A stretch of DNA of 64,000 nucleotides. Origin: an uncultured Lachnospiraceae bacterium (GTDB lineage Bacteria; Bacillota; Clostridia; Lachnospirales; Lachnospiraceae). Of this stretch, positions 21,912 through 53,160 are shown in pieces. Position 1 is the first letter of the stretch. Each line of letters begins with the position of its first letter. Position numbers and translations under genes: made by a program. The stretch lies in the NCBI GenBank assembly GCA_947172645.1, contig CAMWBY010000002.1, positions 124,001 through 188,000 on the forward strand. Reading direction: 5' to 3'. The notes below the pieces were generated by a model that made no database searches, was not told the origin of the DNA, and saw nothing but the letters and a program-made list of their open reading frames with translations.

Positions 21912-21976
21912 GCTACTGTCCTCCATCACTGCATAAATTCCCATTTCGGGGAAAATCTCCGTTTTTTTACAGAACA

Positions 21977-22006
21977 AAAGGGCCCCTGTATAAAACCGGC
22001 CCCTTT
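21977..22006 (-). terminator. Terminator-like hairpin after the LCP gene
   Basis: On the minus strand AAAGGGGCC pairs with GGGCCCTTT with one bulge, followed by TTGTTCTGT. It stands between the LCP stop and the next glycosyltransferase and may be partial, since the downstream gene has no obvious promoter. Confidence 0.5.
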
Positions 22007-25959: not shown

Positions 25960-26007
25960 ACCAATCCCCATTTCCGTTTCATCTACAGCCCTGGCTTGTT
26001 CACCCCT

Positions 26008-27586: not shown

Positions 27587-29308
27587 TTACAGATATGCTT
27601 TCAAATCTTCTGTCAATTTATTCAGTCTTTCTTGTGCGTCTTCCAGACTCGTGCCCTTGACGCCCATATAGAATTTAATCTTCGGCTCTGTGCCGGACGG
27701 ACGTGCGCAGCACCAGGAATCATTCGTCAGCTCGAAATACAGCACGTTAGACTGCGGAAGCCCTGTCGTGCCTTCCTCTCCGGATTCCGGTTTCAGTGTC
27801 TTTCCCGTCGTATAATCCCTAAATTCTTTGACCTTCAAGTCGCCAAACTCCTTGGGAGGATTGCTTCTCAGCTTATTCATAATCTCTTCAATCTGCTGGG
27901 CGCCGTCAATACCCTTCATCGTGATAGAGTACTGGCTCTCCTTGAAATAACCATATTTCTCATACAGCGCAATCATCTGGTCCCATACAGTCTTGCCGTT
28001 CTTCTTGCACCATGCCGCCATCTCGCACAGGCACATAACCGCAACGACGGCGTCCTTATCCCTTGCGTGGGTTCCCGCCAGGCATCCGTAGCTTTCTTCC
28101 AAACCGAAGACATAATTGTTGGAGCCTGTCTGCTCGAAGAGTTTAATCTGTTCGCCGATGAACTTAAATCCTGTCAGTACTTCGATAAATTTCACTTTAT
28201 AATCGTCTGAGATAGCGCGCGCCATATTTGTTGTAACAATAGTAGTAACAAGCGCGGGATTCTCCGGCATCTTACCTGTAGCGGTGCGTTCCCTCAGAAG
28301 GTATTCCGCAATCAGCATACCGGACATATTTCCCGTAAAAGGAACATACTCCCCGGATTTCGTGTCGAGCGCATAGATACCCAGCCTGTCTGCATCGGGG
28401 TCGGTAGCAAGCACGATATCCGCATTCTTTTCTTTCGCCAGTTTGAGGGCAAGGGTAAATGCCTTGGGGTCTTCCGGGTTCGGATAATCCAGTGTGGTGA
28501 AATCCGGGTCGGGCATCTCCTGCTCAGGCACCACATAAACATTCTTGAAGCCAAGCTCTGACAAAATCCGTCTGACAGGCACGTTGCCGGTTCCATTGAA
28601 CGGAGAGTACACAATCTTCATGTCCTCCGCCATCTCCTGAATCACTTCCGGATGGATAATCTGCTTCTTCAGCTCTTCCATATATTTATCGTCAATCTCT
28701 TGACCGATTACCACGTAGAGTCCGGCCTTCTTCGCCTCTTCTTTGTCCATCGTCTTTACCGTATGGTAATCTGTCACATTGTTCACTTCCGTAATAATCT
28801 CTTTATCTTTAGGCGCCGTAACCTGGGCGCCATCTTCCCAGTAGCACTTGTATCCGTTATACTCCGGCGGATTGTGGCTTGCCGTAATCACAATACCTGA
28901 GATACAGCCGAGTTCACGAAGCGCAAAGGATAATTCCGGCGTGGGCCTGAGCGCATCGAACACATATGCCTTAATACCGTTGGCAGCCAGGCACAGCGCA
29001 GCCTCATCCGCAAATTCAGGGGACATTCTCCTGGAATCATATGCAATCGCAACGCCTTTGTCCTCTCCGCCCTGTTTCTTTATGTAATTGGCAAGACCCT
29101 GTGTAGCCTTGCGCACCGTGTAGATGTTCATGCGGTTTGTTCCTGCGCCAATCACGCCTCGCAGGCCGCCCGTTCCAAACGCAAGCTCTTTGTAAAAACG
29201 GTCTTCAATCTCTTTCTCGTCATTTCTGATTGCCAGAAGCTCCTGTTTCGTCGCATCATCGAAATAGGAATCTTCTACCCAAAAGTCAAATTGTTCCTTG
29301 TAACCCAT
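27587..29308 (-). CDS. Phospho-sugar mutase (alpha-phosphoglucomutase, PgcA type)
   Basis: 573 residues, full length. The active-site loop is TASHNPPEYNGYK with the phosphoserine Ser, the Mg loop DPDADRLG, the sugar loop GLEESYGC and the C-terminal phosphate loop RPSGTEPKIKFY. It interconverts glucose-6-phosphate and glucose-1-phosphate, the substrate of RfbA in the operon next door. GGAGG lies 7 bases before the ATG, and it has its own promoter and terminator, so it is a single-gene unit between two glycan gene groups. Confidence 0.93.
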   Translation of the reverse strand: MGYKEQFDFWVEDSYFDDATKQELLAIRNDEKEIEDRFYKELAFGTGGLRGVIGAGTNRMNIYTVRKATQGLANYIKKQGGEDKGVAIAYDSRRMSPEFADEAALCLAANGIKAYVFDALRPTPELSFALRELGCISGIVITASHNPPEYNGYKCYWEDGAQVTAPKDKEIITEVNNVTDYHTVKTMDKEEAKKAGLYVVIGQEIDDKYMEELKKQIIHPEVIQEMAEDMKIVYSPFNGTGNVPVRRILSELGFKNVYVVPEQEMPDPDFTTLDYPNPEDPKAFTLALKLAKEKNADIVLATDPDADRLGIYALDTKSGEYVPFTGNMSGMLIAEYLLRERTATGKMPENPALVTTIVTTNMARAISDDYKVKFIEVLTGFKFIGEQIKLFEQTGSNNYVFGLEESYGCLAGTHARDKDAVVAVMCLCEMAAWCKKNGKTVWDQMIALYEKYGYFKESQYSITMKGIDGAQQIEEIMNKLRSNPPKEFGDLKVKEFRDYTTGKTLKPESGEEGTTGLPQSNVLYFELTNDSWCCARPSGTEPKIKFYMGVKGTSLEDAQERLNKLTEDLKAYL

Positions 29309-29445: not shown

Positions 29446-31446
29446 CTAACTTATCACCTGCAATGCGAAGTCGCTTCTGTCCAGAGAGAAATTCGGATTA
29501 TAGTAGGGGTCTCCCTTCTCCAAAACCTCGTTCCATTTTTCCCGGAAAGCAGCGGATTCTCTGTCGTAGCGTTCCGCACTTGCCCCCTGGCTGTCCGAAC
29601 CGCGGGAAACCGACTCGAAATGATATAGCTCTGCAAACGGGGTAAACACATTGACATACCCCGCTTTCCATGCGCGGACGCACAAATCCACGTCGTTCAA
29701 GGACACTGCAAAATCTTCATCCAATCCTCCAAGCTGTGTAAACAGCGACTTTTTCATCATCAGACACGCCCCCGTCACCGCCATCACATTCTGCGCATAG
29801 CACAACCTGCCCATATACCCCAGATTGTTGCTGCTGACACGGTAATGGCTGTGCCCCGCCGTCCTGTGCTGTCCAAGCCCAAGAACGACTCCTGCATGTT
29901 GAATCGTCCTGTCCTCATAATAGAGCTTCGCGCCTACCGCGCCCACATCACGCCTCTGGGCATACATAAGCAGCTCTTCAATCCAGTCAAGCGTAATCAC
30001 CTGCGTATCATTGTTCAGAAGAAGGATATATTCTCCCCGCGCCTCGGATACGCCAAGGTTATTTATCTTGGAATAATTAAAATCGCCATGGTACTGGAAT
30101 ACCCGCACATTGGGCGTTTCCTGGAGGGTTTTATAGTAATCGAAGATTTCATCTGTTTCGCTGTTATTCTCCACCACGATAATCTCATAATTATCATACG
30201 TGCTCTTCTCCTGAATCGAAGTGACGCAGCGCCGTAAATCTTCGATATGATCCTTATTCGGAATAATGATGCTCACCATGGGATTTCCCTGTATCTCATA
30301 TTTAATCTGGAAAATCGTCTCAAAAGCCTTGGTGGAACTAATCTCGAAGTTCTCAAAGCCCTGTTCCCTAAGGTGCGAAGCCACCGCGCCCTTTGCCGCC
30401 TCGATGGCGTAGCTCTTGGCGTTGATATCGGCCGCCACGCTGCCCGCATGGGAACGCCAGTAATAGAGAAGCTTCGGCACATGCACCACACATTTCGCCC
30501 TGGCTGTGAGCCGCAGAATCATGTCATGGTCCTGGCTACCGTCAAACTGCGGACGGAATAGCTGCATCCCCGTCAGGAGATTTTTATCAAAAGCGCTGAA
30601 ATGGCAGATATAATTATTTGCCCGCAGGTTATCCGGCGCAAAATCCGGCTTAAAATGCAGGGTAATCATATCGTCAATCGTCTTGTTGCCTTTAAAAGTC
30701 GCCTCGTCGCAGTAAATGTAGTCCGCCCCTTTGTCGCAGATAACTTTCATATACTCATATAATACGCTCGGATGAAGCACATCGTCGTGGTCAAAAAGCG
30801 CAATGTAATCGCCAGAAGCCATCCCGAGACAGGCGTTGGTATTCCCGGAAATCCCTTCATTCTTCGGCAGTTTCCGGTAAATAATCCTGGAATCCGCAGC
30901 GGCGTATTCTCTGCAAATCTGTTCCACCTCGCCGTGCTCCCCGTCGGAACCGTCCGCAAGACACAATTCCCACTTGCCGTAAGTCTGCGCCCGGACAGAA
31001 TCAACCGCCTGGCGCAGGAATTTGACAGGCGTATTATAGAGCGGCATAAGGATACTGAATTTAATATTTCTCTCAAACTTCTCCTCGCTCTGCCGTTTTG
31101 CCTCCTGCGCGTCCGGGAAGCTGGCCGTGCCATGCCGTATTCTTGCCTTGCGCTCGATGCTCTTGGCATTCAGCTTGCGCAGGACGCCTTTCAGGCTGCC
31201 GTAATACCCCAGACGCTCCTTCGTGCGCCGCATCCAATGCACAAGAGAACGCAAGGGCTTGGATAACCGCCAGAAAACGCTGCCCTTTATACGGGCAAGT
31301 TTCCCTTCCAGGTCTGCGTTCTTTTGCTGCGCATTATTCAATTTGTCCGCCAACACACTGCCTTTTTTGCACTCACGCTCATACGCGGCTTTGTAAAAAG
31401 ACAACGCCTCTTCCTCTGACATTTGGTTTTGTTGCTTCTGTTCCAT
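29446..31446 (-). CDS. Two-domain family 2 glycosyltransferase
   Basis: 666 residues. An N-terminal coiled-coil segment (~10-60) and a basic linker precede two GT2 domains. The first (~127-350) has FSILMPLYNTP and LFDHDDVL; the second (~385-640) has VSIIIPNKDH, LLNNDTQVI and SLNDVDLCVRAWKAGY. Both metal motifs are intact, so it may add two sugars or make an alternating disaccharide repeat, as in other bifunctional polymerising GT2 proteins. GGGGAAGG precedes the ATG. It is the last gene of the rfb operon. Confidence 0.88.
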   Translation of the reverse strand: MEQKQQNQMSEEEALSFYKAAYERECKKGSVLADKLNNAQQKNADLEGKLARIKGSVFWRLSKPLRSLVHWMRRTKERLGYYGSLKGVLRKLNAKSIERKARIRHGTASFPDAQEAKRQSEEKFERNIKFSILMPLYNTPVKFLRQAVDSVRAQTYGKWELCLADGSDGEHGEVEQICREYAAADSRIIYRKLPKNEGISGNTNACLGMASGDYIALFDHDDVLHPSVLYEYMKVICDKGADYIYCDEATFKGNKTIDDMITLHFKPDFAPDNLRANNYICHFSAFDKNLLTGMQLFRPQFDGSQDHDMILRLTARAKCVVHVPKLLYYWRSHAGSVAADINAKSYAIEAAKGAVASHLREQGFENFEISSTKAFETIFQIKYEIQGNPMVSIIIPNKDHIEDLRRCVTSIQEKSTYDNYEIIVVENNSETDEIFDYYKTLQETPNVRVFQYHGDFNYSKINNLGVSEARGEYILLLNNDTQVITLDWIEELLMYAQRRDVGAVGAKLYYEDRTIQHAGVVLGLGQHRTAGHSHYRVSSNNLGYMGRLCYAQNVMAVTGACLMMKKSLFTQLGGLDEDFAVSLNDVDLCVRAWKAGYVNVFTPFAELYHFESVSRGSDSQGASAERYDRESAAFREKWNEVLEKGDPYYNPNFSLDRSDFALQVIS

Positions 31447-31509: not shown

Positions 31510-33870
31510 TCATATCTCACAGGTTTTATCGCTCCATGCAAGTTCCTTAGCGCCGCTTGCCTGATTGACACATAACATCCCTATCTGGTAAGTCCCGGAC
31601 ACTAAGTCCTCCCGCAGGACGCGCAGCACAAAGCCCGCGAGGCAGATGTTGCGTTCCATAGGTAAAATCTCCTCCACGTCCCTGCGATACCAGTTCTCAG
31701 GCACTGCCGTATAATCATCACCGTCTATCCGTCTTAATAACAGGTGTTTCTCATAAACGGCGTTGTCGGCGCCAGGCACGTAACACCAACCCATAATCCA
31801 AAGAATATCCGGTTCCCCGGCATGAACCTTATGCTGTATCTGCGCCCTGTCGACGGTAAGCTGCAGCCTACCTATATTGGCTTTCCTGCACAATTCCCCC
31901 GAAACCGGTTCCGCCGCGACAGTATGCAGGCGCTGCTCATAGGGGAATTTATAATTGCACACATAATCCGAGGCATTGTCAATCAACGCCTTGTTATAAA
32001 AAGGATCGTACCCTTTCATCTGGGGGTGTCTCGTATAAAGATTCTCCTTCTCTTCCAAAAGCCTGCCCCATTTTCCATCATCCTGCTCGTCCAATCCTCT
32101 GCTCAAAGACTCATGATGGAACAACACCGCATCGTTGCGCTGTACATTGTAATATCCTGCCTCGGACAGCTTAAAGCATAAGTCCACGTCATTGTAAGAA
32201 ACCGCCATCGTTTCATCCATGCCGCCCACTTGCTCATACTTACTGCGGCTGACCATCAGGCAAGCCGCCGTCACGCCGGCCATATCGTAAGCCACTCTGT
32301 TGCGTCCATAGTAATAATCTTTGTCGTCGGGAAAAGTAACTAACTTGTGGGACGGCCCAATCTCCATATTGGTGATGCCTACATGCTGTATTCTCTGCGT
32401 GTCCGCATACCATAGTTTCGCGCCCACCGCGCCTACATGCTGCTGCAACGCCTGCCCTGCCATACGTCTGAGCCAACTTTGCTCTATAATTTCCACGTCG
32501 TCATTGAGGAATAAAAGCAGGTCGCCCCTGGCTTTCGCCGCTCCCATATTGCACATCCTGGAAAAATTAAAGTCCATCTTCTCATACAGATACGTGAAGC
32601 CGTATTCCCGCCGTAATTCTTCCATCTTGGCACGGTTTTCCTCATTGCTTCCGTTATCCACCACAATCCACTCATAATACCGGTACTCCGTCTTCCTACG
32701 GAAGGATTCCAGACACCTTCTGAGCACGTCCGGATGGTCTTTCGAAGGAATCACCACGGAAACCTCATGATGCGGCGCCACATGGCGGTCTGCGCTGCGC
32801 GCGCGGGCGCACCGCTCCGCGCCGGATATGGATGTGTCGTAAACGATATGGTAAAGCCCCGGCTCCTGCCCGCCCGTAAGGCTTCCTTTCAGCCCACGCC
32901 TCCTAAGCGCCGCCTCCCGCACCGCGCAATACTCTTCCCCCGCCCCGGCGGTATACTGTCCGTTTTCCAGTTCTTCCCCCAGACGCCTCTTGGCCAACCG
33001 GAACCTTTCTTCCGGTTCTCTGCATTCTTCAAGCTCTTTTGCAACTTTCCCTGAAGGTTCATAAGCCCGATGATAGAGCACGCCGTCAATATGGCATATT
33101 CCCTCTTGCAGCGATACGCCTTCCAAACGGCAGCGTCTGAAAGCTTCCTCTTCCATACACAGACACAAATCATAAAACCTGACCGCCTGGCTCGTCTGTC
33201 TTGTGCGGCTCTCCATTTTTTGCCCGGAAAGCACCACAGACAGTAAATCCGCTTTCACCGCCACCAGATGTCCCCAATAATGGAAGGAGAGCATCGTGTC
33301 CGGGGAATACCCAGGCTTGAACCATGGATGCATACGGCCAGATAAATCTTCCCAATAAAAATCTTCGTCCGCATATGCTATTTTGCAATATTTATTTGTA
33401 TTAAAACATGATTTAACTTCAGAAAACGTATTTTTATCTAGGATACCTCTGCCATATGCGAGAAGGATGATATCGGAATCAGGCACACGCAAGGATTGCC
33501 ATCCGTTTACTGAAAAACAGTCGTTTTCATAACTATCGTTATTTTGTTTCCCTATCCATTCTTGATAAGGATTTTGCTGTCTCCTGACTTCCTCCATATA
33601 GTACAGCAAGTACGGGTCCGCTTCCGGGCTTCCATCCTGATACCGGCTGTGCCGGGCAACATTCTTCGCACCATGGTACAGCTTACGGAAAGGAGCCGTC
33701 AGTTTCCAGAATGTATTGGCATAGATACGGTTCAGATTGTCGTTCAAGTCTGCCTGCCGCCTCTCGGCGTCCGCAATCTTGCCCGCCAGCACAATATTCT
33801 TTTTGCGTTCTCTCTCATATGCGGCCGCATAATACGCCGCCCAGCCATACCGGTTCCCTTGTTCATTCAT
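31510..33870 (-). CDS. Large family 2 glycosyltransferase with degenerate first domain
   Basis: 786 residues. An N-terminal coiled coil (AYERERKKNIVLAGKI-like, ~10-50) matches that of the neighbouring GT2. The first GT-like region (~100-290) lacks a clear opening motif and has YADEDFYWED in the metal position. The second domain (~370-600) is complete: VSVVIPSKDHP, LFLNDDVEI and SYNDVDLCFKLSEAGY. A C-terminal ~130-residue beta-rich domain follows. It starts 3 bp after the stop of the methyltransferase-kinase gene, so the two are translationally coupled. Confidence 0.85.
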   Translation of the reverse strand: MNEQGNRYGWAAYYAAAYERERKKNIVLAGKIADAERRQADLNDNLNRIYANTFWKLTAPFRKLYHGAKNVARHSRYQDGSPEADPYLLYYMEEVRRQQNPYQEWIGKQNNDSYENDCFSVNGWQSLRVPDSDIILLAYGRGILDKNTFSEVKSCFNTNKYCKIAYADEDFYWEDLSGRMHPWFKPGYSPDTMLSFHYWGHLVAVKADLLSVVLSGQKMESRTRQTSQAVRFYDLCLCMEEEAFRRCRLEGVSLQEGICHIDGVLYHRAYEPSGKVAKELEECREPEERFRLAKRRLGEELENGQYTAGAGEEYCAVREAALRRRGLKGSLTGGQEPGLYHIVYDTSISGAERCARARSADRHVAPHHEVSVVIPSKDHPDVLRRCLESFRRKTEYRYYEWIVVDNGSNEENRAKMEELRREYGFTYLYEKMDFNFSRMCNMGAAKARGDLLLFLNDDVEIIEQSWLRRMAGQALQQHVGAVGAKLWYADTQRIQHVGITNMEIGPSHKLVTFPDDKDYYYGRNRVAYDMAGVTAACLMVSRSKYEQVGGMDETMAVSYNDVDLCFKLSEAGYYNVQRNDAVLFHHESLSRGLDEQDDGKWGRLLEEKENLYTRHPQMKGYDPFYNKALIDNASDYVCNYKFPYEQRLHTVAAEPVSGELCRKANIGRLQLTVDRAQIQHKVHAGEPDILWIMGWCYVPGADNAVYEKHLLLRRIDGDDYTAVPENWYRRDVEEILPMERNICLAGFVLRVLREDLVSGTYQIGMLCVNQASGAKELAWSDKTCEI

Positions 33871-33873
33871 CTG

Positions 33874-36009
33874 TCAAAACAGCCCTCTCTTCTGCATGTG
33901 TTTCACCGTATCCTCCGGCAGCTTCGTCACTTCCATCGCCATCTGCAATACATTGTTTTCCTCACCGGAAAGCCCTGATAACGATATGGTAATATTCGGG
34001 TCCTTCGTAGGAAAAACATAAGTGTTCTCCCCGGCTTTCCATCCATTGACCTGAATCTGCTTTCCTTTCCACGGAATCAAAACGCCATTCCATCTAATAT
34101 CACGGATATAAACCAGGCAATAATCGCTGCACGGGTCAATACGGAGCGCGCTCCTGCCGCCGGGAACCGCCACTGTAAGCTCTGTCATTCCCTCCGGAGT
34201 CACATGAATCTGTTCCTCCGCCGCTTCGTCCAGAAAGAATGACTGTTCCTCATTGAATCCTCTGCCCGTATCCTCATAAATCTGTATATAATCTTTATGC
34301 CTGGCAAGTTCCTGTCCCTGACAGAACGCTTCCACAGTATACACCGGACACCCGATGGCGTCCCGTATCTCCGCCATGGACATATTCTTCCCTGTCACAT
34401 ATTTTTGAAATTTCATTTCCTGCCTGCGATATTGTTCCGCATCAGATTGTCCGATTTTCAGTTTATCAATAATTAAATCAAGATTTAAACTATTCCTTTT
34501 TTCATTTTCCAGCAGATAACAGTACACCGCCCGGAAAGCAATCTGCTTCGCCTCTACAGCCTTCCCAAAGCTCCACTCAAAATCAATAACATTCCATGTG
34601 TTATCGATATCGTCCGGCACCACAACGTTTGCAAATATCAGATCATAATCGGAAATCTCCGCCCCCTCCCCATAGGAAATACGGCGCAGATATTCGTCGA
34701 ATAAACGGTGGAACCCCTCCACGTCATTGCGCTCCAGGCAGCCGTCCATCAGCTCCTCCAGCCGGATGCCTTCCACATATTCCAATTGCAGATACGGCTG
34801 CTTCTCTCCCTCGTTTCCGTTATTGTCTTTATCCTGTCCCTGCACGGCATTTTCCTGGACGTCATACACCAACTTACAGCGGTTGACGGACAGCCCGCTG
34901 CCTTCGTAACGTTCTGTCAGCCTCTCATACGCCCTCGCAGTATTCTCGATATGCCTCCATGCCTCTTTCGATAACGGATGTTTTTCTATGATTTTTCCGG
35001 TTGCACTCTCTTTCAGCACCGTCTTGATACAAAATTCCGGTTTCCTGTCATTAGAATATTTCACATATTTTTCTTCCAGTTCCGGGCCAAGGAGCATCAT
35101 ATACGAATTGGAAAATAATGGGAACTGCCGCTCCCGGATAATTGTATCAAACACTTTCTTTTCATCAAACAACTGCAATCTGTCCCTGTCAAAATTCCTG
35201 AGATTAGAGGACAATTCCCCTACCTGGGGAAGTCTGTCGTCGGAATACAGAGTCGTCATAAACTTATAGTCCGGATAAGGATAATACATATGGGCATGTT
35301 CAAAACCGCATTTTTCTGCAATGCCACGCAGTCCGTCAGCCGTAAAAGTCCGCACGACGCCGCCTTCCGGATAGTTTTCCAAGCTGCTGAAATATGTTCC
35401 CAGGTGGTCTTCCCTGCACCCTGCCCAATATTTCAGCCCAAATTTGTTCTCGATGGCAATCGCGATATGCCCCTGGGGGTTCATATGCTTCCTGACAATA
35501 TTCAGAAAGTCCACGTACGGCGTCTCAGACTGGATATAAGCCTGCGCATACTCAAAAGCGCCAATCAGGCAGATATAATCATAGTCACAGGGAAGGTCCG
35601 GCTCAACATCCTGGAAATTCCCCACATGTATCGTGACGTTCTTTGCATCCATGTGCCTGTAAGCGTTAATCCGACTACGTTTCCTGGACAGTTCAATACA
35701 AGTCACTTCCCCCGCTTTCCTTGACAGGACACCGGTAATCGCCCCGCAGCCTGAACCGACCTCAAGCACCTTCATATCCTTCGTAATCGGAAGCCACTCC
35801 ACGATATTCTCCCGCCCGGAAGAAAGGTGATACAGCACCGGCCAGTTCTTCCTCTCCTCAATTATCCGCGGATACTCTACCGCCGCATAATCCCGCGTAA
35901 TTTGAAGCAGTTCATCTTCTATATCACCGTCACAGTAATAGTCTTCACCCGGATAGTGGGTTAAGTCCAGTTTTATTTTTCCAATTTCTTCGATGTTGTT
36001 CTCCGGCAT
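33874..36009 (-). CDS. Methyltransferase-kinase fusion, WbdD-like glycan-capping candidate
   Basis: 711 residues. The N-terminal class I SAM methyltransferase (~60-260) has motif I VLEVGSGCGAITG at 81-93 and an acidic ribose-binding CIELSRK. A kinase-like region follows (~325-500): CIKTVLKES, a hinge YLQLEYVEG, a catalytic-loop-like DYDLIFANVV (454-463) and IDFEWSFG (475-482), as in aminoglycoside-phosphotransferase-like folds. Residues ~560-711 are beta-rich. In E. coli O8/O9a, WbdD joins kinase and methyltransferase activities to cap the O-antigen and stop growth, and the Wzt C-domain reads that cap. Here the gene lies directly before the GT2 genes and after an ATPase with a Wzt-like C-domain. 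The domain assignment is by motif only; the capping role is inference. Confidence 0.7.
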   Translation of the reverse strand: MPENNIEEIGKIKLDLTHYPGEDYYCDGDIEDELLQITRDYAAVEYPRIIEERKNWPVLYHLSSGRENIVEWLPITKDMKVLEVGSGCGAITGVLSRKAGEVTCIELSRKRSRINAYRHMDAKNVTIHVGNFQDVEPDLPCDYDYICLIGAFEYAQAYIQSETPYVDFLNIVRKHMNPQGHIAIAIENKFGLKYWAGCREDHLGTYFSSLENYPEGGVVRTFTADGLRGIAEKCGFEHAHMYYPYPDYKFMTTLYSDDRLPQVGELSSNLRNFDRDRLQLFDEKKVFDTIIRERQFPLFSNSYMMLLGPELEEKYVKYSNDRKPEFCIKTVLKESATGKIIEKHPLSKEAWRHIENTARAYERLTERYEGSGLSVNRCKLVYDVQENAVQGQDKDNNGNEGEKQPYLQLEYVEGIRLEELMDGCLERNDVEGFHRLFDEYLRRISYGEGAEISDYDLIFANVVVPDDIDNTWNVIDFEWSFGKAVEAKQIAFRAVYCYLLENEKRNSLNLDLIIDKLKIGQSDAEQYRRQEMKFQKYVTGKNMSMAEIRDAIGCPVYTVEAFCQGQELARHKDYIQIYEDTGRGFNEEQSFFLDEAAEEQIHVTPEGMTELTVAVPGGRSALRIDPCSDYCLVYIRDIRWNGVLIPWKGKQIQVNGWKAGENTYVFPTKDPNITISLSGLSGEENNVLQMAMEVTKLPEDTVKHMQKRGLF

Positions 36010-36071
36010 TTTCTTCCTGCCTTCCCTTGTGATATGTTGGCATTTCTTTATACATGTGTTATTTTTATATA

Positions 36072-37421
36072 TTATTCAACCTTACATACTTTTATAGACG
36101 AGTTCATATCATAGAACCCTACCGTATCTTTATCTGAAATCACCGTCAGGTTCAGCACGTCGTACAGTCTGTGGTACACCGTAAAATCATCATTCTCATA
36201 TCCGGTAACGCCTAATGACAACAGATAATCGCCCCCCTGCAGATTCATCTCCTGGGTAAAAGTCACTTCCCTCACTTCCCCTGCTTCCACAGGGTCTAAA
36301 AACGCCTTTTCAAACATGGTGTTGGTTCCTGTAATCTCAGTCCCTCGCACATTTTTAATTGTAAAAGCAAAGATAGGCGCATGGAGGCTCTCCGACATCT
36401 TCACTCTCATACAGATTGTAAAGCGGCTTCCTTTCAGGATTGCGGAGGTTCTTGTCCCCTTCTCGTCCGTAATATAGTATTCCGTAATGAGCGCTTTCTT
36501 AGACCCATACTCCAAAAGTTCCGGATTCTCCGCAATGCCGCCGGAAGACTGTTCCTGCAACGTAGTTTCCTTTGACGCCCCGGCTGTCTGCCGTGTATCC
36601 GCCGTTTTGCGCCCCGACGCTGCCCGGCGTACATCCTCATCATCCAAAAGGCTGCCATGCCCGGACTCCAAATCAGGAACCGTATACTGCCCGACAAGTA
36701 CTTGCTTATAAATATCAATCATTTGTTTCGGCGCGCCTTCGCCCAGTTTCGTTCCCTGGTTTAAAAGCACCACCCTGTCGCAGTATTTGCTGATACTGCT
36801 CAGGTCATGGCTGACAAACACGATGGTCTTTCCCATCTCTTTAAACTCTTCAAATTTATGGTAACATTTCGCCTGAAAAAAAACGTCGCCCACGGAAAGC
36901 GCCTCGTCCACAATCAGAATCTCCGGGTCGATATTGATTGCCACCGCGAAAGCAAGACGCACAAACATACCGCTGGAATATGTCTTTACAGGCTGATATA
37001 CATATTCGCCGATATCTGCAAATTCGAGAATGGAATCCATCTTCTCATCAATTTCTTTCTCGCTGAATCCAATCATTGTCCCATTTAAATAGATATTCTC
37101 GATTCCGTTATATTCCATATTAAAGCCTGCCCCTAACTCAAGCAGCGCAGAAATACGGCCATTCACCATCACATCGCCGCGGGTAGGCGTCAATACGCCC
37201 GTAATAATCTTCAAAATGGTGGATTTGCCGGAACCGTTGGTGCCGATAATGCCCACGCACTCGCCCTGCCTGATGGTCATATTGACCCCTTTCAGGGCAT
37301 GGTGCTCCCTGTGGTGTTTCCCGCGCCCAAAGCCCATGGCTTCCTTGATGCGGTCGGAAGGCTTATCGTACAGCTTATATATTTTCTCTACATCCGTGAC
37401 TTGAATCGTAATATTATCCAT
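36072..37421 (-). CDS. Glycan ABC exporter ATPase with Wzt-like C-terminal domain
   Basis: 449 residues, longer than TagH-type ATPases. The ATPase (~1-245) has Walker A GTNGSGKST, signature YSSGMFVRLAFA, Walker B ILIVDEALSVGD and switch His in FVSHD. After a low-complexity linker (~255-310) a C-terminal beta-sandwich (~315-449) resembles the carbohydrate-binding domain of Wzt in O8/O9a strains. In those strains it recognises the chain-end modification before export. AGGAAAAC precedes the ATG. It is in the same operon as its permease, but 327 bp of repeat DNA separate the two genes. Confidence 0.9.
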   Translation of the reverse strand: MDNITIQVTDVEKIYKLYDKPSDRIKEAMGFGRGKHHREHHALKGVNMTIRQGECVGIIGTNGSGKSTILKIITGVLTPTRGDVMVNGRISALLELGAGFNMEYNGIENIYLNGTMIGFSEKEIDEKMDSILEFADIGEYVYQPVKTYSSGMFVRLAFAVAINIDPEILIVDEALSVGDVFFQAKCYHKFEEFKEMGKTIVFVSHDLSSISKYCDRVVLLNQGTKLGEGAPKQMIDIYKQVLVGQYTVPDLESGHGSLLDDEDVRRAASGRKTADTRQTAGASKETTLQEQSSGGIAENPELLEYGSKKALITEYYITDEKGTRTSAILKGSRFTICMRVKMSESLHAPIFAFTIKNVRGTEITGTNTMFEKAFLDPVEAGEVREVTFTQEMNLQGGDYLLSLGVTGYENDDFTVYHRLYDVLNLTVISDKDTVGFYDMNSSIKVCKVE

Positions 37422-37685: not shown

Positions 37686-37752
37686 TATATACAAGAATCT
37701 GCTCCTGTGCTAGCACATCGCAGATTCTTGTATATATTTCGGCACTGCTCAT
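37672..37752. repeat. Conserved-flank hairpin element, copy 1
   Basis: A perfect 22-bp inverted repeat (37681-37702 with 37720-37741, beginning CGAAATATATAC) encloses a 17-base loop containing the palindrome TGTGCTAGCACA. It is bordered by TCGCCCTATC on the left and GGCACTGCTCAT on the right, overlapping the stem by one base at each end. The same borders surround a different stem at 55539-55615. Confidence 0.85.
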
Positions 37753-38786
37753 AGCACATCCGCAAAGTGGATGCGCATGCGGCGGAAGATTAGGGTTCCG
37801 ATACAGAATAAGCTGATTGTAAATATCCAGAAATAGGTGGATGAATAAAAGTGTTCCCAGAACCATACTTCTTCATAAATCGCACTGCGGTAGCCATTGA
37901 CTACATAGACCAGGGGATTCAGCTTGAAGAGCGTCTTCATATTGTCGGTTTTAAGCATTGTAATGCTCCACAAAATCGGCGTCGCCCACATGCCAATCTG
38001 TAGGGCGATATTGATAATCTGCTGTAAGTCCCTGATAAACACAACCAGGGCGCAGGTCAGATAGCTCATGCCAAGCACAAGCAGAAACATGCAAAAACTG
38101 TAATATATAATCTGTAATGTATAGATATTGGGATAATAACCGTATCCGATGGACACGAGCAAAAGTATGACCACAAAAAAAATGTGGATAAAAGTCGCCG
38201 CGATTACTTTGATAATAGGAAGAATGCTGATGTTAAACACAACCTTCTTGACCAGATAATTGTATTCGACCAGCGCCATGGTACCTTGTGTAATCGCCTC
38301 GGAGAAATAGAACCATGGCACAAGTCCGGCCATAAGATAAAGCACGTAAGGCACTTCCAACCCGCTTGCCACCATCTGGCTCCTCGTATCGAAAACCTTA
38401 TCAAAAACAATCCAATACATCAGTACGGTCACCACCGGCTGCGCCATCGCCCAGACGATTCCAAGATAAGAGCCTGCGTAACGCTTCTTGAAATCATTCT
38501 TGGCGAGTTTCCAAATCAGCTTCCGGCTCTGGAAAAGTTCCACCGGGATTGTCATGATTCTTTCATAGTAAATCGCATAAATGATACATGTGAACGTAAT
38601 CAACACACATCCGCTGACCTTCTTCATGCGTTCCGTCACCTGGTCGGCCAAAGGATTATGGTGATTCACAAGCACCAACGCCAAAACCAAACCAAGCCCC
38701 CAGAAAATAGCGACTCCTGCGGGCTTTCCTAAATGTTTGATACTTTTCTTCGAATGTTCCGTATGTTCTGTCTTCTTCAAATCCAT
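37749..38786 (-). CDS. Glycan ABC exporter permease (Wzm/TagG type)
   Basis: 345 residues. Two extra N-terminal membrane segments (~20-75) precede the ABC-2 permease core of six segments with KNDFKKRYAGSYLGIVWAMAQP, the amphipathic start typical of Wzm/TagG. It forms the channel for lipid-linked polysaccharide together with the ATPase encoded next. The ribosome site is weak. It follows rfbC by 55 bp in the same operon. The N-terminal extension is longer than in classical Wzm. Confidence 0.9.
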   Translation of the reverse strand: MDLKKTEHTEHSKKSIKHLGKPAGVAIFWGLGLVLALVLVNHHNPLADQVTERMKKVSGCVLITFTCIIYAIYYERIMTIPVELFQSRKLIWKLAKNDFKKRYAGSYLGIVWAMAQPVVTVLMYWIVFDKVFDTRSQMVASGLEVPYVLYLMAGLVPWFYFSEAITQGTMALVEYNYLVKKVVFNISILPIIKVIAATFIHIFFVVILLLVSIGYGYYPNIYTLQIIYYSFCMFLLVLGMSYLTCALVVFIRDLQQIINIALQIGMWATPILWSITMLKTDNMKTLFKLNPLVYVVNGYRSAIYEEVWFWEHFYSSTYFWIFTISLFCIGTLIFRRMRIHFADVL

Positions 38787-38841: not shown

Positions 38842-39405
38842 CTATCTGCGGTACTTTTCCGTAAAAGCGGCAATCCCTTCCCGTCCTGTATCCTTGGCCG
38901 ACAAAATAGGCTGCGTTCCCTCCGGGACAGGCCATTTGATTCCTATCTCCGGGTCGTCCCAGGCAATGCCGCCCTCGTCGTTGGGATGATAGAAATCCGA
39001 ACATTTATAGGCAAATTCCGCATAGTCAGACACTACATAGAATCCATGGGCAAAATTTTTAGGTACAAAAAACTGCTTCTTATTCTCTGCGGAAAGCAGC
39101 ACGCCATACCACTGCCCATAGGTCGGCGAATCTTTCCGCAAGTCCACCGCCACATCATAGACTTCTCCGCTTAGGACGCGCACAAGCTTATCCTGTGGAT
39201 ACTGAATCTGGAAATGCAGCCCACGAAGTACGCCCTTTGTGGAAGCAGACTGGTTGTCCTGTACAAACACCTGGTCAATTCCCGCTTCCTTAAAGTCATT
39301 ATAATTATACGTCTCTATGAAATAGCCCCTGGCATCCTTAAACACAGTAGGCGTGATGATTTTCAGTCCTTCTATTTCACAAGTCTCTACCGTTATCTTA
39401 CCCAT
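38842..39405 (-). CDS. rfbC: dTDP-4-dehydrorhamnose 3,5-epimerase
   Basis: 187 residues, full length cupin-fold epimerase. RGLHFQ carries the catalytic His, VDLRKDSPTYGQW the His/Asp partner region, and FAHGFYVVSD the substrate pocket. It is the third step of dTDP-L-rhamnose synthesis. Located in the rfb operon, but separated from rfbA by a GH25 gene. No rfbD (dTDP-4-dehydrorhamnose reductase) follows; the next gene is the exporter permease. Confidence 0.95.
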   Translation of the reverse strand: MGKITVETCEIEGLKIITPTVFKDARGYFIETYNYNDFKEAGIDQVFVQDNQSASTKGVLRGLHFQIQYPQDKLVRVLSGEVYDVAVDLRKDSPTYGQWYGVLLSAENKKQFFVPKNFAHGFYVVSDYAEFAYKCSDFYHPNDEGGIAWDDPEIGIKWPVPEGTQPILSAKDTGREGIAAFTEKYRR

Positions 39406-39516: not shown

Positions 39517-40866
39517 TTAATCACCGTCGCCCACAGTGGGCACATTGCCGCTGTCGCCATTGATGACGCCAGAATACCCTGCCGCACCTTTGGCATGGTT
39601 GATTGACGTATCAATGTTCATGTAGCACAGGTTCAAATCTACCCCCGTCCCAATGCCCGGAACCGTGCCCTTGGAAGTGTACTGCCACATATGATAATAT
39701 TCATCGTATGCAGGCACATCCGCATATTCCGCCAGCCATGTCTTATAATCTGACAGTTCTGTCATGTCTACTTCGTCATTCAGCCAGTTTCTGGAACCGT
39801 AGATACCTGTCTCATAACCTGCCGCGGAAATAGTCTCCAGAAAAGCCTTATGTATCTTCGTCCTTTCTTCTGCATCCAATACATCCGCACGCCCTTTGCC
39901 CCCGGCGCTCTCGCTGTCTAGGAATACCGGATAATCCACGTCATAATCTTCTATGAGCCGGATTACCATACTCGCCTCTTCCACAGCCTCCACCTCGTTT
40001 GTAGCCTGGGTGAAGAAATACACGCCTACCGGGACTCCCGCCGCAATGGCCCCCTTGATGTTCTCCTCATACATAGGATCCAGTACAAGGGCGCCGCTGG
40101 ACGCGCCTCTGTAACCACACCGGATGATGGCAAATTCGATGCCCGCATCTTCCACCTGTTCCCAATCTATAGTCTTATTCCACTTGGACACATCGATTCC
40201 CAACCTGGCGCCGTCGCCCGAGAACTGCAAGTCTGTATTCTCACTGCCGTCCGCCGCTTCCTCCGCGCCGTTCACGGCCTTATCTTCTTTCTCCACATCA
40301 ATGTCGTTTTCTGTCATAATCAGGTATTCGATGTCATCCAGCACACGGTATTCTATCTGCTCTCTTACCTGTATCGAAGTGACGGTATTGGGAACAATAA
40401 ATCCCTCCGCTTCCTCCAACGATACATGATATTCCCCCGCGCGCAGCCCGTCAATATAAACGACCCCGTCCTCATCTGAATCCGTATACTCCCCGACTCC
40501 CTGTATTTTGATGACAAAAGGCGCTCCTGTCACTAACTTGCCCACACTGTCCACAATCATAATGCGCAAATCTTTTGATACGGAACTCATCACAAGAAAT
40601 ACGCTTCTGCCGGAGTAAGTCTCTATGCTCTTAAACTTAACCTCCGGGTCGAAAAAGGTTTCATCATGCAGAAAGCCGGATAAATTATTCCCCAGCTGTG
40701 CGCCTTCCGTCTCCTCGGACGCCACTGCCTCCACCGCCTGGTCTTCCTCGGATAAACCCAACTTTGTTTTCACCGCATCCAGATTCATATATGCGATGAC
40801 TGCCACCAGGACAAGGAACATGACAATCATGGCAAACAGCATTCTTTTTGTTTTCCTAGAGCCCAT
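39517..40866 (-). CDS. Membrane-anchored GH25 lysozyme-like protein
   Basis: 449 residues. A short basic cytoplasmic N-terminus, a membrane anchor (~8-27), a beta-sandwich domain (~85-180) containing [16 protein letters not shown] and GLRAGEYHV like Spa-A/Cna-B-type folds, and a GH25 domain (~210-430). The GH25 active site is LGIDVSKWN and YPVFLDSES, with the DxE pair intact. It should cleave the glycan backbone of peptidoglycan outside the membrane. The start at 40866 has GAGG 6 bases upstream and overlaps the end of rfbA by 11 bp, so translation is coupled. The insertion of a wall hydrolase between rfbA and rfbC is unusual. Confidence 0.9.
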
Positions 40867-41725
40867 TCGCAACCTCAACCATATATTGACCGTACTGTGT
40901 CTTCATCAGCGGTTCCGCTAATTTCAGAAGCTGTTCCTTCGTGATAAAACCCCTTTTATAGGCGATTTCTTCAATACAGGAAATATACAGCCCCTGCCTT
41001 TTCTGGAAAGCGGCCACGAAATCCGCCGCATCAAGCAGGGAATCGTGATTGCCCGTATCCAACCATGCAAATCCGCGCCCCAGAGTTTCCACATACAGCA
41101 AATCCCTGCGTAAATATTCATTGTTAATGCTTGTAATCTCTATCTCGCCCCTGGCGGAAGGTTTCACGTCGGCCGCAATCCCCACCACGTCATTGTCATA
41201 GAAATACAGCCCCGGCACCGCATAATTGCTCCTGGGGCGTTCCGGCTTCTCTTCGATGGAAAGGGCCTTTCCACTCTCGTCAAATTCCACCACGCCATAT
41301 TCCCGCGGGTCCCTGACATAATAGCCGAAGATAGTCGCGCCTTTCTGTCTGGACGCCACTTCCCTGAGCACCCTGGAAAAACTCTGCCCATAGAAAATAT
41401 TGTCCCCGAGTATCAGCGCCACACTGTCCTTCCCGATAAAATCCGCACCGATAATAAACGCATCCGCAAGTCCTCTGGGCTGCTCCTGCACGGCGTACTC
41501 CATATGCAGCCCAAGCTGCTCGCCCGTGCCGAACAATTCCCTAAAAACAGGAAGGTCCCTGGGCGTAGAGATAATGAGTATTTCCCTGATTCCCGCCAAC
41601 ATCAATATAGAGAGCGGATAATAAATCATCGGTTTGTCATATACCGGCATTATCTGTTTGGATACCGCCTTCGTCAACGGATATAAACGGGTTCCCGAAC
41701 CTCCCGCCAATATAATTCCTTTCAT
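40856..41725 (-). CDS. rfbA: Glucose-1-phosphate thymidylyltransferase
   Basis: 289 residues, standard length. The start motif is [18 protein letters not shown], with [19 protein letters not shown] and [19 protein letters not shown]. It makes dTDP-glucose from glucose-1-phosphate and dTTP. The start at 41725 is set by the family N-terminus, with AAGG 8 bases upstream; the open frame runs 12 codons further. It lies 42 bp after rfbB and overlaps the GH25 gene. Confidence 0.96.
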
Positions 41726-41767
41726 CTGCAAAACCTTGCCTTTCCCCGCACCCGTGTGCAAGCGCCA

Positions 41768-42847
41768 TTACTCCTGATACATTTCCTCATAGTATTTCTG
41801 ATAGTCTCCGCTTGTGACATTCTTCATCCACTCTTCATTCTCGAAGAACCACTGGATTGTCCTGCGGATGCCCTGTTCAAACATCGTCTCCGGCTCCCAT
41901 CCGATTTCCGCCTTAATCTTGTCCGGCGCAATGGCGTATCTTCTGTCGTGCCCTTTACGGTCTTCCACATAAGTAATCAAATCCTCGCTGACAAACTCCC
42001 TGCGCGGGTCGTTCTCCGGAAGCATTTCCTGTAAGGTAGACAGAATAATTTTGATAATTTCAATATTCTGCTTCTCGTTATGGCCGCCAACATTGTATGT
42101 CTCAAACAGCCTGCCTTTTTCCTGAACCATATCAATCGCCTTGGCATGGTCTTCCACATACAGCCAGTCGCGGACGTTCTTGCCGTCGCCATAGACAGGC
42201 AGTTTCTTTCCCTGCAGCGCATTGTTGATAATAAGCGGAATCAATTTCTCCGGGAATTGGTAAGGGCCATAATTGTTGGAGCAATTGGTGATATTCGCCG
42301 GGAATTTATAGGTGTCCATATAGGACTTCACCAACATATCAGAACCCGCTTTGCTCGCCGAATAAGGACTGTGCGGCGCATAGGGAGTCGTCTCATAGAA
42401 ATAACCGCCGTCATCCTCCAGGGAACCATACACTTCATCCGTAGACACATGCAGAAACTTCTTGTCCGGCTTGAAACTACCGTCCGGCAGTTCCCACGCC
42501 GCCTTGGCGCAGTTTAGCATGACTCCGGTTCCAAGCACGTTGGTCTGCAGGAATACTTCCGGGCTGCGGATACTCCTGTCCACATGCGTCTCCGCCGCAA
42601 AATGTACTACCCTGTCAATCTCGTTCTCCGCAAAAATCTTCCAAATCGCCTCTTTGTCACAAATATCCGCCTTGACAAAAGTATAATTGTCCCTGCCCTC
42701 AATATCCCTCAAATTCTCCAAATTACCCGCATAAGTCAATGCATCCACATTGATAATCCGAATCTCCTTGTCATACTTGCGAAACATATACTGAATATAA
42801 TTAGAGCCGATAAACCCCGCCCCACCTGTCACTAAATATGTCCTCAT
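41768..42847 (-). CDS. rfbB: dTDP-glucose 4,6-dehydratase
   Basis: 359 residues. The NAD motif is TGGAGFIGSNY, the catalytic region STDEVYGSL and YSASKAGSD (Tyr-xxx-Lys), with the Asp-Glu pair in TDEV. It converts dTDP-glucose to dTDP-4-keto-6-deoxyglucose. GGAGGG precedes the start at 42847; the open frame extends further 5' only because it reads through the 37-bp repeats of the leader. It is the first gene of the rfb-export operon. Confidence 0.96.
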   Translation of the reverse strand: MRTYLVTGGAGFIGSNYIQYMFRKYDKEIRIINVDALTYAGNLENLRDIEGRDNYTFVKADICDKEAIWKIFAENEIDRVVHFAAETHVDRSIRSPEVFLQTNVLGTGVMLNCAKAAWELPDGSFKPDKKFLHVSTDEVYGSLEDDGGYFYETTPYAPHSPYSASKAGSDMLVKSYMDTYKFPANITNCSNNYGPYQFPEKLIPLIINNALQGKKLPVYGDGKNVRDWLYVEDHAKAIDMVQEKGRLFETYNVGGHNEKQNIEIIKIILSTLQEMLPENDPRREFVSEDLITYVEDRKGHDRRYAIAPDKIKAEIGWEPETMFEQGIRRTIQWFFENEEWMKNVTSGDYQKYYEEMYQE

Positions 42848-42870
42848 ATAACCCTCCGTTATTATTTTAT

Positions 42871-43061
42871 GCATTCTCCATTGCCTCAAAAGAATGCACG
42901 TATTTTGCATTCCCCGATAGCTACAGAAGAATGCACACTTTTTGCATTCCCCAATAGCTACAGAAAAATGCACACTTTTTGCATTCCCCGATAGCTACAG
43001 AAGAATGCACGCTTTTTGCATTCCCCAATAGCTACAGAAGAATGCATGCTTTTTGCATTCT
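42871..43061. repeat. 37-bp tandem hairpin array in the rfb leader
   Basis: The core TTTTGCATTC occurs with its G at 42907, 42944, 42981, 43018 and 43055, exactly every 37 bp, with a degenerate sixth copy at 42871 (36 bp away). Each unit reads AATGCA(C/T), a T-rich loop, GCATTC, then CCC(C/A/G)ATAGCTACAG, so each can form a hairpin pairing GAATGC with GCATTC. There are no spacers between copies. The array lies in the predicted untranslated leader between the promoter at 43126 and rfbB. Confidence 0.95.
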
Positions 43062-46438: not shown

Positions 46439-46552
46439 TTTTCCTCCATCCATAATGTTTCATTTTTGTTTAAATTTTCCACTACTTAAACGTTCTTTCT
46501 TTTAAAAATACGTAACCTTATGTAAACCCTTCCTTTTTAACATTTTTGTAAC

Positions 46553-49464: not shown

Positions 49465-49555
49465 GTCCGTTTCCACGCTTTCCTTTTCACCTCCATGTCT
49501 GAGCAATTTTTGCGAAGTCCGCGAGCCAAATTTCAAATTTGACACTTTCCTTCCA

Positions 49556-51040: not shown

Positions 51041-51106
51041 CGTCCCTACCTCCTGCACCTTGAAACGGCCGCCTGTCCAATCTGCATTGCACCATCCATA
51101 TCTGTC

Positions 51107-53147: not shown

Positions 53148-53160
53148 ACGCAATCTTCCT

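What the first reader, a model, noticed from the sequence alone, without database searches (positions are those of the whole stretch)
33874..37421. WbdD-like methyltransferase-kinase beside a Wzt-type exporter ATPase in a Gram-positive genome
Seen: one protein carries a SAM methyltransferase motif (VLEVGSGCGAITG) and a kinase-like loop (DYDLIFANVV then IDFEW), and the next gene encodes an ABC ATPase with a ~135-residue C-terminal beta domain. Known: in E. coli O8/O9a, WbdD kinase-methyltransferase caps the O-antigen and the Wzt C-domain recognises that cap. Inference: this operon may use a capped, chain-end-gated export route for a wall glycan in Clostridia. I am not aware that this has been described.
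Basis: partly seen in the sequence, partly recalled or inferred. Interest (0 to 1): 0.8.

Follow-up and report, generated by a model that had tools for sequence, protein, structure and literature searches.

The report
Methylphosphate-capping enzyme for clostridial wall glycans
A bacterium's sugar-polymer operon pairs a two-part enzyme, predicted to put a phosphate and then a methyl group on the end of a rhamnose-rich chain, with an exporter whose ATPase carries the kind of domain that reads such end-caps; the enzyme type is known from Gram-negative bacteria, and here it turns up widely in a family of clostridia.

Summary
Window 33874-36009(-) encodes a 711-aa protein: a SAM methyltransferase, a cryptic kinase-fold domain that Pfam misses, and a beta-rich C-terminal domain. 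Next to it, 36072-37421(-) encodes an ABC ATPase with Wzt_C (E 1.3e-42), closest to E. coli O9a Wzt (2r5o).

The catalytic half is of the Klebsiella O7 (ORF6-N) type, shown in 2024 to put methylphosphate on terminal rhamnose; the link runs through a Pseudomonas homologue carrying the published ORF6 residues. WbdD shows no detectable kinase similarity.

Of 78 clostridial Wzts read, all 26 with a kinase homologue in the same stretch have arginine where two known methyl-cap readers have tryptophan; of the other 52, three do. These form one clade with O9a, so the pattern is not independent evidence.

Phosphate caps (C. difficile Ox247) and methyl caps (Geobacillus) with ABC export were already reported or proposed in Gram-positives. 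Apparently new: an ORF6-type terminator in Clostridia, matched in 77 of 150 genomes of the window's family (taken to be Lachnospiraceae), without the usual coiled-coil ruler. The chemistry is untested.

The parts
33874..36009 (-). 711-aa methyltransferase-kinase (predicted chain terminator, called MTK here)
   Evidence: ORF; Pfam MT; invariant kinase residues; kinase fold
35080..36009 (-). MTK residues 1-310: SAM methyltransferase part; Y25, Y60, G85, G87, E106, Y154 correspond to residues reported for Klebsiella ORF6-O7
   Evidence: the model of this part is poor
34375..35070 (-). MTK residues 314-545: cryptic kinase-fold domain with K343, D456, N461, D476, E478
33877..34302 (-). MTK residues 570-711: beta-rich domain after the kinase, in the place of the Ig-like CBM of ORF6-O7
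   Evidence: strands and pLDDT 74-92 in residues 571-700; only a weak profile match to the Pseudomonas homologue, E 0.077
36072..37421 (-). Wzt: ABC ATPase with C-terminal carbohydrate-binding domain
   Evidence: ABC_tran and Wzt_C; closest solved full chain 8dku, closest solved C-domain 2r5o
36105..36512 (-). Wzt_C domain, residues 304-439; R418 (codon 36168-36170) aligns with the methyl-pocket Trp362 of A. aeolicus Wzt
37749..38786 (-). Wzm: ABC-2 permease
   Evidence: PF01061 E 8.6e-17
31510..33870 (-). GT2 glycosyltransferase (786 aa) with N-terminal stretch ending in FWKLTAPFR
29446..31446 (-). double-GT2 glycosyltransferase (666 aa) with N-terminal stretch ending in FWRLSKPLR
38842..39405 (-). 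RmlC, dTDP-4-dehydrorhamnose 3,5-epimerase
   Evidence: PF00908 E 1.1e-72
40856..41761 (-). RmlA, glucose-1-phosphate thymidylyltransferase
   Evidence: PF00483; name by homology and neighbourhood
41768..42973 (-). RmlB, dTDP-glucose 4,6-dehydratase type
   Evidence: PF16363; name by homology and neighbourhood
27587..29308 (-). phosphoglucomutase
   Evidence: PGM domains I-III
26033..27481 (-). GT2 glycosyltransferase
24991..25971 (-). GT2 glycosyltransferase
23474..24883 (-). bacterial sugar transferase, likely the initiating polyprenyl-phosphate enzyme
   Evidence: PF02397 E 9e-73; role from the family
22017..23222 (-). LytR-CpsA-Psr protein, likely attaches the glycan to the wall
   Evidence: PF03816 E 3.5e-34; attachment is inference from the family
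20985..21977 (-). GT2 glycosyltransferase

Best explanation
The operon makes a rhamnose-containing surface glycan on a lipid carrier inside the cell, ends it with a cap, and exports only capped chains. The 711-aa protein is the terminator: its kinase domain phosphorylates the non-reducing terminal sugar (probably rhamnose) with ATP, and its methyltransferase domain then methylates that phosphate with SAM, blocking further elongation. The Wzt C-domain binds the methylphosphate end and admits the chain to the Wzm/Wzt channel; an LCP protein then probably attaches it to the wall. Shown here: domain content, kinase fold and conserved catalytic residues, homology of the catalytic half to O7-type terminators, a Wzt_C domain of the O9a clade, conserved gene order and co-occurrence. 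Inferred: the chemistry, the sugar, the order of reactions, the gate and the wall attachment.
For: Kinase fold and conserved catalytic residues. Homology to two gammaproteobacterial proteins encoded beside ABC permease and ATPase genes (tblastn E 2e-32 and 2e-34; in a small search set, MT profile E 1e-53 and 7e-51, kinase profile 0.004 and 5e-8). The Pseudomonas protein has Y28, Y66, G91, G93, E112 and Y158, the numbers reported for ORF6-O7 (its Asp is 443, ORF6's 441); these align with Y25, Y60, G85, G87, E106, Y154, D456 here. ORF6-O7 phosphorylates, and partly methylates, O3 of a terminal rhamnose in vitro, and D441A is inactive (PMC11231755, section 11 part 1 and discussion part 1 read). 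The Wzt C-domain is nearest to O9a Wzt-C, whose glycan is phosphorylated and then methylated at the end. Arginine at position 418 in 26 of 26 clostridial Wzts with a kinase homologue in the same stretch, against 3 of 52 others. In 150 genomes of the window's family, 75 of 77 with an MTK-profile match have Wzt_C, and 74 of 76 with strong Wzt_C (E<1e-38) have an MTK match; the other two have MT and kinase next to the Wzt when read. In some relatives the kinase is fused to a glycosyltransferase (L064, L067, L070). RmlA, B and C are in the operon, an RmlD-family match (E 2.5e-95) elsewhere in the genome.
Against: No biochemistry; glycan structure unknown. The ORF6-O7 sequence was not in hand. K343 is Arg/His in the two gammaproteobacterial homologues, and D476 is Glu in Citrobacter. 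The terminator lacks the coiled coil called characteristic of such systems (here). R-type Wzts are one clade, so the arginine pattern may be descent rather than cap specificity. L112 has Arg but sits beside a kinase-less MT-GT. Some MTK carriers lack a Wzt_C match: G006 (its neighbouring Wzt, in L041, is 244 aa, without a C-domain) and G159 in the class, G365 and G379 in the family (no long Wzt in the 16 kb read for G365). C. difficile shows that a cyclophosphate end is another possible outcome.
Confidence: 0.8

Rival explanations
1. Both domains act on the chain end but the cap is a different phosphate form (phosphate alone, or a cyclic phosphate as in C. difficile Ox247), or methyl and phosphate sit on different hydroxyls.
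For: C. difficile Ox247 glycan ends in 2,3-cyclophosphoryl-rhamnose (PMC6254364, passages). ORF6-O7 itself methylated only part of its product in vitro. WbdD's phosphate-methylation His residues are not matched here.
Against: ORF6-O7, to whose catalytic half this protein appears homologous, makes methylphosphate; strong MT homologues read in the class survey have a kinase homologue in the same stretch.
Confidence: 0.12
2. The MT-kinase decorates the glycan along its length or on side chains, and Wzt-C reads something else.
For: Nothing here locates the modification on the chain; four genomes with an MTK match have no Wzt_C match.
Against: Place between Wzt and the glycosyltransferases in 28 of 28 relatives, homology to a shown terminator, Wzt_C of the O9a clade, near one-to-one occurrence with Wzt_C in the family.
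Confidence: 0.05
3. The kinase-fold domain is a catalytically dead binding module and the cap is a plain methyl group, as in E. coli O8, A. aeolicus and Geobacillus.
For: Sequence drift at K343 and D476 in gammaproteobacterial homologues.
Against: K, D, N, D, E residues invariant in 26 sequences and kept in the split and GT-fused kinases aligned; the plain-methyl readers O8 and A. aeolicus have Trp at the pocket position, this one Arg.
Confidence: 0.03

Closest known systems
Klebsiella pneumoniae O7 ORF6-N methyltransferase-kinase terminator (PMC11231755)
   Same: N-terminal SAM MT, cryptic ~223-aa kinase, then a beta domain; six reported MT residues and the kinase Asp map onto conserved residues via a Pseudomonas homologue; ABC-exported rhamnose-containing glycan
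   Different: Clostridial; no coiled coil and no GT modules in the same protein; the paper lists orthologues from alpha- and gammaproteobacteria and cyanobacteria, and homologues in Gluconacetobacter and the archaeon Methanoculleus
E. coli O9/O9a WbdD with Wzm/Wzt (PMC3482155; E. coli HS locus L061)
   Same: MT followed by kinase, ~710 aa, gene order wzm-wzt-terminator-GT; Wzt C-domain of the same clade with Arg at the same place
   Different: No detectable kinase sequence similarity; Pfam sees APH and Pkinase in WbdD but not here; MT His132/His133 not matched; WbdD carries a coiled coil
Clostridioides difficile Ox247 S-layer glycan (PMC6254364)
   Same: Rhamnose-containing glycan, ABC exporter, phosphate on the terminal rhamnose, authors invoke O9a
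   Different: Cap is 2,3-cyclophosphate; the words kinase and methyltransferase do not occur in its main text; whether it has an MTK was not tested here
Geobacillus stearothermophilus WsaE and Wzm/Wzt (PMC2943079)
   Same: Gram-positive rhamnan, terminal cap, predicted cap reading by Wzt
   Different: 2-O-methyl cap, no kinase described in the passages seen; MT fused to two GTs
Aquifex aeolicus Wzm/Wzt (PMC9445017)
   Same: Closest solved full ATPase; cap-reading C-domain
   Different: Reads a 3-O-methyl sugar with Trp362; Arg here

Membership tests
Klebsiella O7 ORF6-N type MT-kinase terminator | MT residues Y28, Y66, G91, G93, E112, Y158 | tested here: met
   Pseudomonas homologue has all six at the same numbers; they align with Y25, Y60, G85, G87, E106, Y154 here. 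ORF6 sequence itself not available
Klebsiella O7 ORF6-N type MT-kinase terminator | Cryptic kinase after the MT with catalytic Asp (D441) | tested here: met
   Kinase fold at about 310-550; D456 invariant in 26 sequences and aligned with Pseudomonas D443
Klebsiella O7 ORF6-N type MT-kinase terminator | Ig-like CBM after the kinase | tested here: inconclusive
   Beta-rich domain in that place; profile match to Pseudomonas only E 0.077; a separate fold was poor
Klebsiella O7 ORF6-N type MT-kinase terminator | Extended coiled coil in the terminator protein | tested here: not met
   Longest helix after residue 545 is 13 residues in the model; home-made heptad score 1.26 against 1.56-1.64 for WbdD and gamma homologues and about 1.3 for unrelated window proteins. 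So filed as a variant, not as a full member
Klebsiella O7 ORF6-N type MT-kinase terminator | Transfers phosphate then methyl to terminal rhamnose | not testable with these tools
   needs purified protein
[quoted passage not shown]
   hhalign probability 1.3; BLASTP best E 1.4; kinase profile does not list WbdD at E<=10
WbdD (O9a) | His132/His133 for phosphate methylation | tested here: not met
   Aligned with E153/Y154; the alignment is weak (probability 59). Arg203 lies outside it
WbdD (O9a) | C-terminal coiled coil | tested here: not met
Wzt with cap-reading C-domain | PF14524 domain after the NBD | tested here: met
   E 1.3e-42, residues 304-439; 2r5o E 2.3e-8
Wzt with cap-reading C-domain | Binds the capped chain end | not testable with these tools
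   needs a binding assay
APH / Bud32 / protein-kinase-like fold | Kinase fold with K, DxxxxN and DxE-type residues | tested here: met

The most novel reading that the evidence does not exclude
A cap code links writer and reader across phyla: Arg at the pocket position of Wzt-C marks methylphosphate (or phosphate) caps and Trp marks methyl caps, whatever enzyme writes them. About half of the species in the window's family would then carry methylphosphate-ended rhamnose glycans made by a ruler-less terminator, with chain length set elsewhere, perhaps by the short N-terminal helices of the glycosyltransferases.
Probability: 0.4. Interest if true: 0.78.

Novelty: new variant of a known kind. Interest (0 to 1): 0.6.

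Why it matters
It predicts a specific end-group on surface glycans of a common bacterial family (77 of 150 sampled genomes match the enzyme's profile; the family is taken to be Lachnospiraceae, abundant in the gut, from recalled knowledge and the titles of relatives). It gives a function to a protein that Pfam and NCBIfam see only as a generic methyltransferase, extends to Clostridia an enzyme type whose activity was shown in Klebsiella, offers a one-residue hypothesis for reading cap chemistry from a genome, and raises the question of how length is set without a coiled-coil ruler.

Tried and rejected
WbdD kinship by sequence: BLASTP, hhalign and profile searches gave only a weak MT-core match. 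WbdD is not among the 50 rows shown by VIA-align, which says nothing about the fold.

Idea that Arg/Trp switches within the R clade with kinase loss: rejected; Arg is in all 18 sequences of A3, and most apparent MT-only loci turned out to have a kinase in the next ORF.

Arg as independent repeated evidence: rejected; one clade including O9a, and O9a is a long branch.

Trp as a full marker of methyl caps: not shown. Of 19 kinase-less, non-Trp class Wzts with a downstream gene scanned, 4 (L080, L083, L088, L090) also have a methyltransferase there; for a few of the 19 the gene scanned was not the very next ORF.

Ruler moved to the glycosyltransferases: kept only as a hint. A loose motif is in 23 of 28 GT666 relatives, 8 of 28 GT786 relatives and 0 of 28 MTKs. 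The heptad score is home-made (GT786 1.48, GT666 1.38, unrelated window proteins 1.28-1.32). A first pattern was badly built and found one protein only; it was loosened.

The C-terminal domain was folded alone as a single sequence by oversight instead of with its alignment; pLDDT 48, not used.

Of 46 class genomes with Wzt_C over the cut-off, the window's own and 39 others were read; 6 were not fetched. The 40 family stretches were chosen on purpose (Wzt_C without MTK, genomes with two Wzts, some typical ones, one MTK without Wzt_C), not at random. Some stretches end at contig ends, so 'no kinase' is weaker there. Many Wzts are close kin (for example L082 and L083 are identical in the tree).

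R. gnavus glucorhamnan: one search, nothing on capping in the listing; not followed. Statements about what is in print rest on searches, whose listings are capped, in an open-licence library.

Full report
WHAT IS THERE. The two ORFs of the finding are real and lie where stated. The 711-aa protein (MTK below) has a SAM methyltransferase domain by Pfam (Methyltransf_23, E 2.3e-8, residues 75-237); all other Pfam and NCBIfam matches listed are methyltransferase-type models too, those of NCBIfam far below their cut-offs. The 449-aa neighbour is an ABC ATPase with Wzt_C (E 1.3e-42, residues 304-439), with an ABC-2 permease gene upstream. The genome has one Wzt_C match and one MTK; the only other MTK match, E 0.045, covers 48 residues of the methyltransferase core.

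SURROUNDINGS. The order Wzm-Wzt-MTK-GT786-GT666-PGM is the same in 28 of 28 relatives, 27 with all six genes and L002 without Wzm at its contig end. Twenty of the 28 records are titled Lachnospiraceae; the other eight carry mixed or vague labels. I therefore take the window's unnamed family to be Lachnospiraceae; this is inference. The operon also holds RmlC, RmlA and RmlB; an RmlD-family match (E 2.5e-95) is elsewhere in the genome. Further along lie three GT2 genes, a bacterial sugar transferase and an LCP-family protein. That is nearly a full set for a lipid-linked, ABC-exported, rhamnose-containing wall glycan; the sugar and the attachment are inference.

WHICH FAMILY. In the yardstick E. 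coli HS (O9), wzm, wzt, a 708-aa methyltransferase gene and wbdA lie in the same order; the 708-aa protein is WbdD, since H132, H133, R203, Y230, E274, W355, N356 and D369 of the WbdD paper fall at those numbers. WbdD and MTK share no detectable kinase similarity (hhalign probability 1.3; not listed by the kinase profile) and only a weak MT-core match; WbdD His132/His133 align with E153/Y154. Pfam recognises a kinase in WbdD but not in MTK. A 2024 paper on Klebsiella O7 describes a different MT-kinase, ORF6-N: an N-terminal MT, an unannotated 223-residue kinase, an Ig-like CBM, then a coiled coil and GTs; it adds phosphate and, partly, methyl to O3 of terminal rhamnose in vitro, and D441A abolishes the activity (PMC11231755, section 11 part 1 and discussion part 1 read). 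tblastn of MTK in plasmids found two records, Citrobacter braakii and Pseudomonas asturiensis, each with ABC permease and ATPase genes just upstream. The Pseudomonas protein has Y28, Y66, G91, G93, E112 and Y158 at the published ORF6 numbers and its Asp at 443; these align with Y25, Y60, G85, G87, E106, Y154 and D456 of MTK. Clostridial MT and kinase profiles find the Pseudomonas protein at 7e-51 and 5e-8, and Citrobacter at 1e-53 and 0.004 (small search set). Against this, K343 is His/Arg in the two, and D476 is Glu in Citrobacter. I conclude that the catalytic half is of the ORF6-N type. The ORF6 sequence itself was not available.

MODULE SHUFFLING. In the class survey the strong MT homologues have a kinase homologue in the same stretch: fused, in the next ORF (L066, L074), or fused to the front of a glycosyltransferase directly downstream (L064, L067, L070). 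The 429-aa MT of L079 has no kinase of its own, but a fused MT-kinase gene lies about 1.2 kb further on. In the family survey single ORFs of 1118 to 1890 aa carry both MT and kinase matches (L115, L118, L124, L129). The catalytic residues are kept in all 14 kinase sequences aligned.

READER AND WRITER. The Wzt C-domain matches O9a Wzt-C (2r5o, E 2.3e-8) better than A. aeolicus Wzt-C (0.014). In A. aeolicus, Trp362 lids the methyl pocket (PMC9445017, passages). The aligned residue is Trp in E. coli O8, Arg in O9a and Arg418 here. I read 78 clostridial Wzts besides the window's: 39 from the class and 39 from the family. All 26 with a kinase homologue in the same stretch have Arg. Of the other 52, 49 do not. 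The three that do are L069, whose genome has the MT-kinase pair on another contig (L070); L113, a 5-kb contig of a genome with an MTK match on another contig; and L112, of the same genome as L113, next to an MT-GT without kinase, a true exception as far as can be seen. The Citrobacter and Pseudomonas Wzts also have Arg. Seven of the eight Trp-type clostridial Wzts have a methyltransferase directly downstream and no kinase match (L081, L085, L087, L089, L092; L114, L116); the eighth, L138, is at a contig end. But 4 of 19 kinase-less, non-Trp class Wzts scanned also have a methyltransferase downstream, so Trp is not needed for an MT partner. A tree of 43 C-domains puts the Arg rows, O9a included, in one clade (99/95). 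This may be one ancient reader lineage used with two unlike writer enzymes, not repeated invention. That the same reader clade goes with unlike MT-kinases (WbdD, ORF6 type) fits a shared ligand but does not prove it.

HOW COMMON. Of 150 family genomes, 77 match the MTK profile at E<=1e-20 (in some the listed match covers only the MT or only the kinase part) and 94 have Wzt_C at E<=0.001; 75 have both, and G365 and G379 have MTK only. Of 76 with strong Wzt_C (E<1e-38), 74 have an MTK match, and the two others (G309, G370) show MT and kinase beside the Wzt when read. Of 291 class genomes, 58 match MTK at E<=0.001, but only 17 of these at E<=1e-19; the rest are short methyltransferase-type or other partial matches. 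Two of the 17, G006 and G159, have no Wzt_C match; in G006 the Wzt next to a fused MT-kinase is 244 aa long, without a C-domain. So a Wzt_C partner is usual, not universal.

WHAT DIFFERS. The O7 paper calls an extended coiled coil a characteristic marker, shown to be a molecular ruler in two systems. MTK has none: the model shows only short helices after the kinase. WbdD of O9a and O8 have a stretch of high heptad score followed by SRSWRMTKGYR and SRSWRITQPLR; similar strings follow a short N-terminal stretch in the two window glycosyltransferases and lie near the end of two distant clostridial MT-kinases (L078, L079), with uneven conservation. That the ruler has moved to the glycosyltransferases is a guess.

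PRIOR ART. Cap and Wzt reading were proposed for Geobacillus. A phosphate-capped rhamnose glycan and an O9a-like role were proposed for C. difficile Ox247. An analysis of terminators and binding modules exists (citation only) and may include clostridial cases. The O7 authors name orthologues in alpha- and gammaproteobacteria and cyanobacteria and homologues in Gluconacetobacter and Methanoculleus. I saw no paper on a clostridial MT-kinase in the listings of searches of an open-licence library.

VERDICT. Observation confirmed; mechanism likely (0.8); family corrected from WbdD to ORF6-O7 type; a new variant of a known kind.

Noticed in passing
39517-40878 (-): A GH25 (lysozyme-type) protein with a weak SpaA-like domain sits between RmlA and RmlC; a homologue lies there in the relatives whose stretch covers it. 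Possibly a wall-remodelling partner of the glycan.
   Followed up: partly
43181-46453 (-): A 1090-aa GH25 protein with Big_2 Ig-like repeats and a choline-binding repeat lies next to RmlB.
   Followed up: no
48394-51058 (-): An MBOAT O-acyltransferase next to a 407-aa protein without a Pfam match, suggesting O-acylation of an extracellular polymer.
   Followed up: no
51894-53153 (-): DUF6077 protein (E 3.5e-116) next to a glycosyltransferase gene.
   Followed up: no
L112:3117-4487: Second Wzt of genome G355 with Arg at the cap position but an adjacent kinase-less methyltransferase-glycosyltransferase; it lacks the R.YD context.
   Followed up: partly
L041:724-1455: A 244-aa Wzt without a C-domain next to a fused MT-kinase (genome G006), so some MT-kinase systems may do without a built-in cap reader.
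   Followed up: partly
L104:8947-10896: A Citrobacter plasmid typed as conjugative carries rmlBACD-type genes, an ABC exporter, an MT-kinase and glycosyltransferases, i.e. a possibly mobile capped-glycan cluster.
   Followed up: partly
L087:9534-11171: A methyltransferase with a coiled-coil-like tail in Pfam's weak matches beside a Trp-type Wzt, resembling the E. coli O8 arrangement; it lacks the SRSWR-type motif.
   Followed up: no
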